A stretch of DNA of 21,170 nt from a virus. The notes under the pieces were generated by a model. That model searched no databases. It was not told where the DNA came from and saw only the letters and a list, made by a program, of their open reading frames with translations. Below are positions 1 through 11,396 of the stretch, piece after piece; the first letter of the stretch is position 1, and each line of letters starts with the position of its first letter. Both the position numbers and the translations under genes were made by a program. The stretch is taken from the IMG/VR virus record IMGVR_UViG_3300043411_001902, positions 1 to 21,170 of that record; one strand, 5' to 3'.

Positions 1-710
1 CCGCTCGCGATCCCGCCGATGGCCGCGGACGCGCCGGCCGCCTGCCCGGCCGCGTACACCGTCCGATGCACCGAGGACAGGCGCGTGGGGGCGGCGCTCG
101 CGTGGGGGAACTGCGCGGACTCGAAGGTCGTCACCGCGGTGTCCGCGTCGCGGAGGCGGACCACGGCGTACTGCCCGCCCTGCTGCTCGAGCGTGCCGCG
201 GCGCTCATGGAGGCGCCGGTACACCGCGACCACGAACCCGAGCAGGAAGCTGGTCCGGAAGGTGGCCCGGGGCACCGCGCGAACGCTGGTCTCGTACGCC
301 TGCTTCTCCAGCCGCTTGGCCTGCTGGTGCAGCATCTGGAGCGTGGCCAGTGCGATCGCGCGGTCCGACGCCCGGCCGAGCAGCGTGGCCCGCGCGCGCC
401 ACCGCCGGCCGGTGCCAGTGAAGACCAGCCGGCAGAAGTGGGTGTGGGCCACGGCGGACGCCAGCCGCGCGGACCATTTCTGCTGCACGCCGCCCCACGC
501 GGCGGTCAGGAGATCGTCCCGGCCCATGGGGTCGTGGTCCTGCTCGTCCTGCAGCTCGAGGTCGGTCATCTCGAGCCGGTGCCGCAGCAGCAGCTCGTTG
601 GCCTTGGCGGCGAAGGCCGCCGCCTCCTCGGTGCTCCCGATCTCCGCGGCGCTGTCCGCCTTGGCGAACAGCTTGCGGACCAGCTCGACGATCTTCGCAG
701 TGCCTGACAT
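1..710 (-). CDS. DUF2786-domain protein, 3' end missing (runs off window)
   Basis: The frame is open from an ATG at 710 to the window edge (236 codons seen). The N-terminus (residues about 5-45) has the DUF2786 pattern: KIVELVRKLFAKADS, then an Ala/Glu-rich helix ending in KANELLLRHRLE. The following part, with W-rich and Arg-rich helices (KWSARLASAVAHTHFCRLVF, then LLGRASDRAIALATLQML), fits the domain that usually follows DUF2786 in phage and bacterial proteins. The molecular role of the family is unknown. GAGGA lies about 8 nt upstream of the ATG. It is probably co-transcribed with the upstream leftward gene ending at 798, after a hairpin in the gap. The long + strand frame opposite it has no recognisable protein and is taken as a shadow. 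Confidence 0.85.
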   Translation of the reverse strand, partial: MSGTAKIVELVRKLFAKADSAAEIGSTEEAAAFAAKANELLLRHRLEMTDLELQDEQDHDPMGRDDLLTAAWGGVQQKWSARLASAVAHTHFCRLVFTGTGRRWRARATLLGRASDRAIALATLQMLHQQAKRLEKQAYETSVRAVPRATFRTSFLLGFVVAVYRRLHERRGTLEQQGGQYAVVRLRDADTAVTTFESAQFPHASAAPTRLSSVHRTVYAAGQAAGASAAIGGIAS

Positions 711-750: not shown

Positions 751-788
751 GCGCCTGAGCTAGTATGCAAGAAAGCTAACTCAGGCGC
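751..788 (-). terminator. Stem-loop between the two leftward genes
   Basis: GCGCCTGAG (751-759) pairs perfectly with CTCAGGCGC (780-788). After one mismatch, TAG/CTA (761-763/776-778) extends the stem, leaving a 12-nt loop. It lies about 10 nt past the stop codon of the gene at 798-1163. There is no clear U-run on the - strand, so it may be an attenuator, an mRNA-stabilising hairpin or a protein site rather than an efficient terminator. Confidence 0.4.
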
Positions 789-797
789 AAGGCCCAG

Positions 798-1163
798 TCA
801 GTCGCCCGGCTCCAGCGACCGCAGAGATACCGTGATCCCGTGCCGGGCACTCCAACGCTCGGCCTTGGCAAGGCCCTTGTAGCCGTTGGCAAGGCCCTCG
901 TGCCATGAGAGCGCGCTCCAGCATTCCGCCTTGCCCTCGATCTCCCGCAGCCTCAGCTGGGCGTAGCGCTCCAGCCGGTCGATGGAGGCGCAGCCGCGAC
1001 CGGCTGCCCGCTCCCGCGCGACCAGCTCCAGCGCGCTCTGGATGCGGTCCCGGACCGCCTCCACCGGCTCGCAGGCCACCACCACGTGGGTGTAGGCGTG
1101 GGCCGTGGTGCGCTCGGCAACGGTGCCATCGGGGAGGGTCAGGGAGAGGGTGCGCTTGGCCAT
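798..1163 (-). CDS. Conserved phage-type hypothetical protein, 121 aa
   Basis: I do not recognise a characterised function. The protein starts MAKRTLSLTLPDGTVAERTT, which looks like a short beta-hairpin. A helical middle follows (VEAVRDRIQSALELVARERA), and the C-terminal half contains SWHEGLANGYKGLAKAERWS. Small proteins with this layout are common in mobile elements. The ATG at 1163 is chosen because GGAG sits 6 nt before it. An in-frame start 51 nt further upstream has no such site and would overlap the promoter region. It is the first gene of the leftward pair. Confidence 0.65.
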   Translation of the reverse strand: MAKRTLSLTLPDGTVAERTTAHAYTHVVVACEPVEAVRDRIQSALELVARERAAGRGCASIDRLERYAQLRLREIEGKAECWSALSWHEGLANGYKGLAKAERWSARHGITVSLRSLEPGD

Positions 1164-1280: not shown

Positions 1281-1549
1281 CGGACGGATTGAGCGTGGTC
1301 CGGACACATTGCGGACAGATGAACATATTAGCATCCCTCGAGATACCAAGGAGTTAGGACACATCGGACGGATCGGACGGATTATTCTCCCCTTCCAGCC
1401 TTAAGAGACACTTCAGGAGCTACACTATAGGGTACCACAGGCGAAAAATGTGTCCGATGTGTCCGATGTGTCCTAACTGTATGCGGGGCCGGCGCTTGCA
1501 GTTTCCCACATCTGTCCGCAATGTGTCCGCAAGCGCTCGGATGTGTCCG
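1281..1549. repeat. Mirror-symmetric array of twelve 9-bp elements (6 + 6 inverted)
   Basis: Six elements of form CGGACNNAT are on the + strand: 1281-1289, 1301-1309, 1312-1320, 1356-1364 (first base A), 1365-1373 and 1374-1382. Six are on the - strand: 1448-1456, 1457-1465, 1466-1474 (again the A variant), 1510-1518, 1521-1529 and 1541-1549. For every pair, start plus mirrored end is 2830, so the whole set is symmetric about base 1415. The pair 1301-1321/1509-1529 is a perfect 21-bp inverted repeat. The pair 1353-1382/1448-1477 matches at 26 of 30 positions, the first 17 perfectly. The DNA between elements is not symmetric. The region lacks any credible gene and is visibly more A+T-rich than the neighbours. 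The likely role is a multi-site protein-binding region (packaging, origin or operator); which one is not decided by sequence. Confidence 0.9.
1383..1447. other. 65-bp asymmetric core of the repeat array
   Basis: This is the spacer between the two innermost elements. It has no internal dyad and no good sigma70 pair. CACTATAGGG at 1423-1432 equals the downstream half of a T7-class promoter, but the upstream recognition half is absent. TATAGT on the - strand (1429-1424) is a possible -10 without a -35. Confidence 0.4.
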
Positions 1550-1786
1550 GTACGTTCCAGAGTGGAATGCTGGTAGGCTCGCAAGCGGAGCGCTGCCGCC
1601 GAGCGCCAAACGATCGGTTCGCCATTGCCGAGCGCCGCGGCCATTGCCGGCCCAGCGCCAGCCGATCGGCTCGCCATTGCCGGCCCAGCGCCAGCCGATC
1701 GGCTCGCCATTGCCGGCCCAGCGCCAACCGATCGGCTCGCCATTGCCGGCCGGAGTCACTGGGTGGGGAGTTAGCACGGGAGGGAA
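1550..1786. repeat. 33-bp tandem repeat, 3.3 copies, with a degenerate leading copy
   Basis: Units lie at 1641-1673, 1674-1706 and 1707-1739, with a partial unit at 1740-1750. Units 1 and 2 are identical and unit 3 differs by one base. Each unit carries the palindrome CCGATCGG and the word CCATTGCCGG. A decayed copy (GATCGGTTCGCCATTGCCG) lies at about 1612-1630. There are no unique spacers, so it is not a CRISPR array. Frames through it only repeat short peptides (for example RQWRADRLALG) and are not taken as genes. The flanks (1550-1603 and 1751-1786) hold only a small palindrome, TTCCAgagTGGAA, at 1555-1567. Confidence 0.85.
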
Positions 1787-1814
1787 TTGCACACGCACGG
1801 TAAGACACTATCCT
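1787..1814 (+). promoter_or_regulatory. Candidate terS promoter, possibly giving a leaderless mRNA
   Basis: TTGCAC (1787-1792), a 16-nt spacer and TATCCT (1809-1814) form a modest sigma70-like pair. The -10 ends only 5 nt before the ATG at 1820, so transcription would begin at or next to the start codon. No Shine-Dalgarno sequence precedes that ATG, which agrees with a leaderless message. Confidence 0.35.
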
Positions 1815-1819
1815 TGGGC

Positions 1820-2419
1820 ATGGCCGGCCGACCGAAACTCAGGGGCATGGTGGCGCAGCTGGTGCGCCTCGCCCGGGAAGCAGGGCTCGACGAGCAGGAC
1901 GACGGCGTCGCGCCCTTGACCGAGGAGCAGCTCGCGCTCGCGTACGCGCTGGCGTGGATCCGCGGCGGCAACCCGGCCGAAACCTCGCCCACAGTGCTCT
2001 CGCTTGCTCGTTACCTCGGAGTATCACGGCCGCTGCTGTACGAGTGGCTGACCGGGACGGACGAGCGCAAGGCGGCGCTAGCCGTCGCGCGCGAGGACTC
2101 GGGGGGCGCTCTTGCCGAGGAAGCGTTGCACCTGCTCGACACCGCAAGCCCGCTCGAGTACCAGCACGCCAACGCGCGTGCCAACTTCCGTAAGTGGCTG
2201 GCTTCGGTACTGGACCGCAAGACCTACGGGCAACAGACAAACGTGCCGGCTGTCGCCATCTCCATTGGTAGCTTGCACTTAGCAGCACACCAAGCGCTCA
2301 AGGCGCTGTCGCCTGCGCCGCTTGCGGTGCTCGGGAGTGGGGCAGAGACCGTGGTAGAGCCCGAGATGTGTGGCGAGGATGCGACGCCTCTGACCCTCGA
2401 GCAAGTGCTTGGTGCTTAA
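1820..2419 (+). CDS. terS: Terminase small subunit (predicted)
   Basis: The 199-aa protein would recognise the phage DNA end and load it onto the large subunit. It begins MAGRPKLRGMVAQL, the basic GRPK start common in small terminases. Around residues 58-76 it has a helix-turn-helix (LSLARYLGVSRPLLYEWL). The stretch NFRKWLASVLDRKTYGQ (about 126-142) matches the W-x-K-x-Y-G signature of Sf6/P22-type small subunits. The length fits the family. Position supports it: first gene of the rightward set, one gene before terL, and directly next to a repeat region that could be its target. A TTG at 1787 is in frame, but the ATG at 1820 gives the canonical N-terminus. Family assignment rests on motifs; a DNA-binding regulator is the alternative. 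Confidence 0.75.
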   Translation: MAGRPKLRGMVAQLVRLAREAGLDEQDDGVAPLTEEQLALAYALAWIRGGNPAETSPTVLSLARYLGVSRPLLYEWLTGTDERKAALAVAREDSGGALAEEALHLLDTASPLEYQHANARANFRKWLASVLDRKTYGQQTNVPAVAISIGSLHLAAHQALKALSPAPLAVLGSGAETVVEPEMCGEDATPLTLEQVLGA

Positions 2420-10334: not shown

Positions 10335-11396
10335 ATGCAGCTCGGGCGCGGTCCTCTCAGCAGCACCCCGATCAGCGCCGCGCTCCGACAGGGAGTTAGC
10401 GGCGCGGATCGGACGTTGTCGGACGGCGGCGCGAGCTACAGTTACAGCGCGGCTGGCGCGGCCACGGTCCGGATCGTCCTGACGGCTGGCGGCGCGAGCT
10501 ACAGTTACAGCGCGGCCGGCGTCTCGCAGGTCCGGGTCACCCTGTCGGATGGCGGCGCGAGCTACAGCTACAGCGCGACCGGCGTCTCGCAGGTCCGGGT
10601 CACCCTGTCGGATGGCGGCGCGAGCTACAGCTACAGCGCGACCGGGAACGTCACGGTGGGCGCGGGCGCGCCCGACCGGACGTTGTCAGACGGTGGCGCG
10701 AGCTACAGCTACAGCGCGGCCGGCGTGGCCACGGTCCGGATCGCCCTGACGGCCGGTGGCGCGAGCTACAGCTACAGCGCGGCCGGTGTCTCGCAGGTCC
10801 GGGTGACCCTGACGGCTGGGGGCGCGAGCTACAGCTACAGCGCGATCGGTGCCTCGCAGGTGCGCGTCACGCTGACGGCTGGCGGGGCTGCCTATACCTA
10901 CGTGGCGGCGGGCGAGGTGCTCATCGTGAGCACGCGCGTCCTCTCGGACGGTGGAGCTGCATATGCCTACGCCGCAACGGGCGAGCTGCGGGGACCCGGC
11001 ACGGCAGCGATCGGCGGCGGGAGGCCGCGGCGCGTGCTGCTGGCCGAGTGGCTGGCCCGGGAAGCGCTGGAGCGCAAGCTCCGCAAGCGCCGCGGGCAGG
11101 CGCCGCGCCGCCGGCCGGTTCCCGTCGAGCTGCTCGAGGGGGAACCGCTCGAGCTGATCGTCTGGGCGGACGAGACGGCGCTGCCGGTGGCGGTGCCGCC
11201 GGCCCTGACGGCCCAGCTGGCGCGGGCGCTCGAGGCGATGACGCCGGAGCAGCTGGTCTATCGGCGCCTGCAGGGTCGGGCCCAGCTCCGGTACACGGTC
11301 GAGGGGAGCCTGCGGGGCCCGGCCGGCCTGCGGATGGACGATGTGGAGGACCTGAGTGAGATCACGCTGATGCTGAGCCTACTGGGGGATGCGTGA
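10335..11396 (+). CDS. Repeat protein with nine approximately 21-residue Ser/Tyr beta repeats
   Basis: The 353-aa protein has about nine tandem units of the form LSDGGASYSYSAAGVSQVRVT (residues about 27-218; 63 bp per unit, some nearly identical in DNA). Two units carry short insertions (after repeats 4 and 8), and the last two are diverged (GGAAYTYVAAG, GGAAYAYAATG). The C-terminal part is different: a basic helix (LAREALERKLRKRRGQAPRR), then an acidic/hydrophobic region ending DLSEITLMLSLL. The repeats probably form stacked beta strands, as in fibre shafts; the C-terminus could attach to the virion. Function not recognised. It overlaps the next gene by 4 nt. Confidence 0.7.
   Translation: MQLGRGPLSSTPISAALRQGVSGADRTLSDGGASYSYSAAGAATVRIVLTAGGASYSYSAAGVSQVRVTLSDGGASYSYSATGVSQVRVTLSDGGASYSYSATGNVTVGAGAPDRTLSDGGASYSYSAAGVATVRIALTAGGASYSYSAAGVSQVRVTLTAGGASYSYSAIGASQVRVTLTAGGAAYTYVAAGEVLIVSTRVLSDGGAAYAYAATGELRGPGTAAIGGGRPRRVLLAEWLAREALERKLRKRRGQAPRRRPVPVELLEGEPLELIVWADETALPVAVPPALTAQLARALEAMTPEQLVYRRLQGRAQLRYTVEGSLRGPAGLRMDDVEDLSEITLMLSLLGDA
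10410..10985 (+). repeat. 63-bp tandem repeats within the coding region
   Basis: GGCGCGAGCTACAG(C/T)TACAGCG recurs about every 63 bp, seven times between about 10429 and 10842, with two weaker units after that. Third-position differences are few, so the units are recent or are homogenised by recombination. Confidence 0.85.

What the first reader, a model, noticed from the sequence alone, without database searches (positions are those of the whole stretch)
1281..1549. Twelve short elements in exact mirror symmetry around base 1415
Six CGGACNNAT elements on one strand and six on the other occupy exactly mirrored positions: all six pairs sum to 2830. The order of spacings (20, 11, 44, 9, 9 bp between starts) is kept, and even the A-for-C variant is mirrored. 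The DNA between elements shares no symmetry. Binding sites and their geometry therefore look selected, as in a two-fold nucleoprotein complex or loop. It lies between leftward genes and the rightward late genes, beside terS. Candidates are a pac/cos recognition site for TerS, a replication origin with inverted iterons, or a master operator. I know of no described site with this layout, but could not search.
Basis: seen in the sequence. Interest (0 to 1): 0.88.

Follow-up and report, generated by a model that had tools for sequence, protein, structure and literature searches.

The report
Mirrored twelve-site phage replication origin
A phage from metagenomic DNA carries twelve short protein-binding sites laid out as an exact mirror image, which most likely form its DNA replication origin, where two ring-shaped helicases are loaded face to face; the general plan is known from phage satellites, but the six-plus-six mirror and its place next to the packaging gene are new.

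Summary
Twelve (C/A)GGACNNAT sites (1281-1549) form six pairs that all sum to 2830. Random placement never gave more than four mirrored pairs in 100,000 trials. Only two such sites lie elsewhere in the 21 kb record. The most likely meaning is an iteron origin of replication for a self-loading hexameric initiator helicase, as in SaPI/PICI islands and P4.

Main evidence: a search for the core geometry found one other virus contig, L138, with 3 sites, 64 bp, 3 inverted sites (window: 3+65+3), just 3' of a D5/P4-type helicase gene. Among 72 D5 helicase loci, 50 have inverted iteron arms with a 9-bp period and a centre of about 59 bp, about 20 bp 3' of the stop codon. None was found in 5' flanks, inside genes or in shuffles. 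Iteron sequences vary while the geometry holds.

Not shown: the window is about half a genome and contains no initiator. Its array is not beside a helicase gene and lacks the CG-alternating centre of the D5 group, so the initiator class is open and I do not file it as a member. A TerS site or an operator remain weaker rivals. [quoted passage not shown] this is inference.

The parts
1281..1320 (+). outer three sites of the left arm (starts 1281, 1301, 1312)
   Evidence: exact matches to CGGACNNAT
1356..1382 (+). inner triplet of the left arm, 9-bp period (starts 1356 A variant, 1365, 1374)
   Evidence: tandem period 9
1383..1447 (.). 65-bp centre, 48% G+C in a 69.6% G+C record (0.4% of 65-bp stretches are as low); presumed melting region
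   Evidence: function inferred
1448..1474 (-). inner triplet of the right arm, 9-bp period (starts 1448, 1457, 1466 A variant)
   Evidence: tandem period 9
1510..1549 (-). outer three sites of the right arm (starts 1510, 1521, 1541)
   Evidence: exact matches to CGGACNNAT
798..1163 (-). leftward neighbour gene, 121 aa, function unknown (N-terminus like phrog_32956)
3..707 (-). second leftward gene, DUF2786/DUF7168, cut by the record end
1787..2419 (+). terS (Sf6-like terminase small subunit), rightward neighbour; context, not shown to act on the array

Best explanation
The array is an origin of DNA replication of an SU10-like tailed phage. Each CGGACNNAT is an iteron bound by the C-terminal winged-helix domain of a phage-encoded, self-loading hexameric initiator helicase, most likely of the D5/P4 primase-helicase kind. 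The six sites on each side, all pointing inward, assemble one hexamer per arm, so two rings are placed head to head around the relatively A+T-rich 65-bp centre. The centre melts, each ring engages one strand, and two forks leave in opposite directions. Shown: the array, its exact symmetry, its low G+C centre, and that arrays of the same period, orientation and centre length lie at the 3' end of D5 helicase genes in other phages. Inferred: that this phage has such an initiator in the unsequenced half, that it binds these sites, and the one-site-per-subunit reading.
For: Same motif and core geometry (3 sites, 64 bp, 3 inverted sites) in L138, directly 3' of a D5_N/DUF5906 helicase gene in a module with Prim-Pol, SSB, YqaJ and ERF. 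In 50 of 72 D5 helicase loci, inverted arms with period exactly 9 in the 3' flank, none in 5' flank, gene or shuffle; centre mostly 57-68 bp, arm start about 20 bp after the stop; GAC core inward in 44 of 51, outward in 0, as in the window. Motifs differ between loci and track the helicase C-terminal part beyond the core (partial r 0.24, 0 of 2000 permutations). The L138 helicase model matches SaPI5 Rep (7ola, Z 29.3; sequence E 2.7e-13). Literature: SaPI Rep binds iterons 3' of its gene, apparently as two hexamers (PMC7581432); PICI origins have two iteron sets around an AT-rich region (PMC6092414). P4 has 9-bp-phased inverted type I repeats 3' of alpha, and an annotated origin between leftward and rightward genes.
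Against: No initiator gene in the record; the array is not next to a helicase gene, as it is in the D5 set. The centre lacks the alternating CG tract found in 65 of 72 D5 flanks. Structural relatives have mixed replication genes, some with AAA_25 helicases. No binding or replication data.
Confidence: 0.7

Rival explanations
1. It is an origin, but the initiator is a RepA-like AAA_25 helicase rather than a D5/P4-type one.
For: TerL/portal relatives carry AAA_25 helicases; in L007 an array lies between the AAA_25 gene and terS, 2.3-2.5 kb before TerL, as in the window. L056 has CGGACACAT at 9 bp, 3+3, around the 3' end of an AAA_25 gene. L028 and L134 have GGACA clusters 3' of AAA_25 genes.
Against: L056 sites point outward, not inward. 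The AAA_25 group of L007 mostly has 10-12-bp iterons around a GC hairpin; 4 of 31 pass a mirror test that 50 of 72 D5 loci pass.
Confidence: 0.25
2. It is an operator cluster for a phage regulator that controls the leftward and rightward transcription units.
For: It lies between divergent genes, and repeated operators are common there.
Against: The same core geometry recurs 3' of helicase genes, not in divergent promoter regions. No sigma-70-like promoter was found in 700-1900 (weak, the host may use other promoters). Operators are not known to need a 65-bp symmetric centre.
Confidence: 0.12
3. It is a TerS recognition (pac or cos-flanking) site.
For: terS is the next rightward gene.
Against: Arrays of this kind occur beside helicase genes in many phages; only the position links it to TerS.
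Confidence: 0.07
4. It is a centromere-like partition site, the abutted ends of a mobile element, or an assembly artefact.
For: Clusters of short repeats also occur in centromeres and transposon ends (general knowledge).
Against: No partition or transposase gene was found among the proteins searched. The arms differ in 31 of 48 spacer positions and in some sites, so neither a copied arm nor a chimeric read explains them.
Confidence: 0.04

Closest known systems
SaPI / PICI replication origins (pri-rep-ori; PMC6092414, PMC7581432)
   Same: Two oppositely oriented sets of short iterons around an A+T-rich centre; the initiator is a self-loading hexameric helicase whose C-terminal domain recognises the iterons (literature).
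   Different: There the origin is immediately 3' of rep; here no rep is adjacent. Six sites per arm in exact register; full-size tailed phage, beside terS. SaPI iteron coordinates were not compared here.
Phage P4 crr and origin (type I repeats; NC_001609)
   Same: crr has 9-bp-phased type I repeats in inverted pairs 3' of alpha; the annotated origin lies between leftward and rightward genes, like the window array.
   Different: Different sequence (GGTGAACA); P4 sites are fewer and not in exact mirror.
Array of L138 and the D5-helicase arrays of other phages (this survey)
   Same: Same motif (L138), 9-bp period, inward orientation, centre about 59-65 bp.
   Different: Usually 2-3 sites per arm, about 20 bp 3' of the helicase stop, CG-alternating centre.
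Arrays 3' of AAA_25 (RepA-like) helicases, e.g. L007, L056
   Same: Iteron clusters beside an initiator helicase; L007 has the same position before terS; L056 has the same motif and period.
   Different: L007 group: 10-12-bp iterons, central hairpin, not mirrored; L056: outward orientation.

Membership tests
PICI/SaPI/P4-type (D5 helicase) iteron origin | two oppositely oriented iteron sets around a centre | tested here: met
   six + and six - sites around 65 bp
PICI/SaPI/P4-type (D5 helicase) iteron origin | 9-bp iteron period and centre of about 57-68 bp (survey of D5 loci) | tested here: met
   inner triplets at 9 bp, centre 65 bp
PICI/SaPI/P4-type (D5 helicase) iteron origin | iterons point inward | tested here: met
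   44 of 51 D5 arrays inward, 0 outward; window inward
PICI/SaPI/P4-type (D5 helicase) iteron origin | A+T-rich centre | tested here: met
   48% G+C against 69.6%; lowest 0.4% of 65-bp stretches
PICI/SaPI/P4-type (D5 helicase) iteron origin | array immediately 3' of the rep/helicase gene | tested here: not met
   neighbours are a 121-aa leftward gene and terS; P4's own annotated origin is also remote from alpha
PICI/SaPI/P4-type (D5 helicase) iteron origin | element encodes the cognate helicase | not testable with these tools
   record is a fragment
D5 origin group of L138 relatives | alternating purine-pyrimidine tract in the centre | tested here: not met
   longest alternation 5 in the centre, 8 in the array, against 14 or more in 65 of 72 D5 flanks
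AAA_25 (RepA-like) helicase arrays of TerL relatives | 10-12-bp iterons with a central GC hairpin 3' of the helicase gene | tested here: not met
   window has 9-bp period, no hairpin in the centre, no adjacent helicase
TerS recognition (pac/cos) site | TerS binds the repeats and virion DNA ends map here | not testable with these tools
   only proximity to terS is known

The most novel reading that the evidence does not exclude
[quoted passage not shown]), so that the DNA itself records the geometry of a loaded pair of replicative helicases.
Probability: 0.2. Interest if true: 0.75.

Novelty: new variant of a known kind. Interest (0 to 1): 0.52.

Why it matters
If right, the layout gives a readable origin code for phages and plasmids with self-loading helicases: period 9, inward arms, centre of about 60 bp. 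In the D5 set this predicts origins from sequence across very different iteron sequences. The six-plus-six mirror would be a ready substrate for asking how two hexamers are loaded head to head, a question shared with SV40 T antigen and MCM.

Tried and rejected
TerS (196 aa) gave no relatives in IMG/VR or the phage records. DNA search of the region in phage records gave only short chance matches. Rfam: nothing. D5_N was not found in eight contigs with related TerL, nor the window's portal in 46 D5 contigs (that search had no positive control). A composite arm like the window's was not found elsewhere in IMG/VR. A looser pattern in genome contigs hit mostly Lentisphaeria repeats and was set aside. 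A plain CGGACACATCGGAC scan returned 119 stretches; of the twelve looked at closely, several lay inside genes. A scan for second, distal arrays in 27 D5 contigs found none beyond one single pair. A recent inverted duplication was rejected because spacers and site interiors differ.

Full report
Observation. The window is the whole of one IMG/VR record, 21,170 bases, apparently a fragment. It holds a rightward structural block of an SU10-like phage: Sf6-like terS, TerL, SU10 portal, scaffold, SU10 capsid protein, lysozyme. Left of the array are two leftward genes, one of unknown function (798-1163) and one with DUF2786/DUF7168 (3-707). Between them and terS lie twelve (C/A)GGACNNAT sites. All six pairs sum to 2830, the spacings are as reported, and the A variant is mirrored. 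Random placement never gave more than four pairs about one centre in 100,000 trials; Markov sequences never had more than three sites in 270 bp. Site positions match across the mirror at 48 of 54, spacers at 17 of 48 (random 11.8 +/- 2.9), and the flanks outside at 23 of 100. The arms therefore keep sites and spacing while most of the rest has drifted. The centre of 65 bp has 48% G+C in a 69.6% record.

The lead. A scan of IMG/VR for two 9-bp-phased sites, a 45-75 bp gap and two inverted sites returned one contig, L138. Its array has three + sites, 64 bp and three - sites of the same motif. It lies directly 3' of a D5_N/DUF5906 helicase gene, in an operon with Prim-Pol, SSB, YqaJ nuclease and ERF annealing protein, a replication and recombination module. 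The closest annotated phage by that helicase, AcaML1, has arms of CTGACGGGT at 9 bp in the same place, and phi105 has GTTACTTTT arms at 9 bp.

The survey. With an alignment of these helicases 80 loci were fetched. Of 72 distinct ones, 50 had inverted arms with an internal period in the 700 bp 3' of the helicase match. In all 50 the period was 9, although 8 to 12 was allowed. None was found in the 5' flank, in the gene or in shuffled flanks. The first arm mostly starts about 20 bp after the helicase stop and the centre is mostly 57-68 bp. Motifs differ between loci (GTGACGGAT, CTGACGCAG, TTCGAAACC, GTGCCAGAT, CTGACAGAT). Iteron distance correlates with distance of the helicase C-terminal part (r = 0.62) and of the core (r = 0.61); the partial correlation for the C-terminal part given the core is 0.24, with no permutation of 2000 as high. 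Shared ancestry is not fully removed by this test. In 44 of 51 arrays the GAC core points inward, in none outward, as in the window.

The protein. The model of the L138 helicase (mean pLDDT 82) matches the SaPI5 primase-helicase (7ola, Z 29.3, 392 residues, 14% identity) and other D5-type hexameric helicases; by sequence the best PDB match is also 7ola (E 2.7e-13). Its C-terminus has the helix and strand order of a winged helix (my reading of the secondary structure). [quoted passage not shown] PICI origins always have two iteron sets flanking an AT-rich region, 3' of rep, and the rep-ori unit drives plasmid replication (PMC6092414). In P4, crr is 3' of alpha with 9-bp-phased inverted type I repeats, while the annotated origin lies between leftward and rightward genes.

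Mechanism proposed. An initiator of this kind would bind six sites on each arm, form one ring per arm, melt the relatively A+T-rich centre and leave as two forks. Shown here: sites, symmetry, low-G+C centre, and the association of the same core geometry with initiator helicases elsewhere. Inferred: the initiator, binding, melting. A 9-bp step is 0.86 of a helical turn, close to 5/6, which would suit neighbouring subunits of a six-fold ring; this too is inference.

Limits. The record has no initiator, its array is not next to a helicase gene, and the centre lacks the alternating purine-pyrimidine tract that marks the D5 set (65 of 72 3' flanks with at least 14 bp, 0 of 71 in 5' flanks, 0 in genes, 0 of 21 in AAA_25 flanks). 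For these reasons it is not filed as a member of the D5 origin group, only as working like one. Relatives by terminase and capsid have mixed replication genes, some with AAA_25 helicases. Arrays of the AAA_25 group near L007 are of another design, mostly 10-12-bp iterons and a central hairpin; 4 of 31 pass a somewhat more permissive mirror test (Fisher p about 1e-7 against 50 of 72). L056, however, pairs CGGACACAT, 9 bp and 3+3 with an AAA_25 gene, pointing outward, so that rival stays open.

Verdict. An iteron origin with inverted arms is the best reading. The stated 0.7 covers the origin reading as a whole, with the D5 kind more likely than AAA_25 as initiator; the 0.25 given to the AAA_25 rival lies partly inside it. 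The layout is a variant of a known kind: the strict six-plus-six mirror and the place beside terS are new here, while the principle is known. A pac site and an operator are weaker. A useful by-product is the fixed geometry of D5-helicase origins with a CG-alternating centre; no description of that centre was found in the one search made for it.

Noticed in passing
3' flanks of D5 helicase genes, e.g. L189, L190, L191, L197, L252: 65 of 72 flanks carry a 14-bp or longer alternating purine-pyrimidine tract (such as CGCGCGCGTGCGCGCG, Z-DNA-prone) and all 49 measured array centres have at least 10 bp of it; none in 5' flanks or genes. I found no description of it.
   Followed up: partly
window 1640-1751: 33-bp tandem repeat, 3.4 copies at 98% identity, between the array and terS.
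   Followed up: no
window 10417-10885: 63-bp tandem repeat inside ORF 10335-11396, giving repeats of LSDGGASYSYSAAGV.
   Followed up: no
window 757-780, 1205-1225, 1266-1275, 1328; L138 540 and 588: A+T-rich stretches with TTAGC upstream of both leftward genes and next to the array; TAGCATAT also stands beside the L138 array.
   Followed up: no
L007 4753-7227: The TerL gene of this relative seems to hold an intein-like insertion after the Walker A region (824 aa).
   Followed up: no
L267-L301: AAA_25 helicase genes of this group are followed by arrays of 10-12-bp iterons (TTATGGCGCA, AACCGTAGCA and others) around a GC-rich hairpin: a second origin-like design.
   Followed up: partly
L139-L141, L143, L144, L146, L149-L152, L154, L155, L157-L162: Oligosphaera and other Lentisphaeria carry many arrays of 9-bp CGGACNGAT-like repeats in opposite orientations; the one read in full (L141) is intergenic and hairpin-like. 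No initiator gene was looked for beside them.
   Followed up: no
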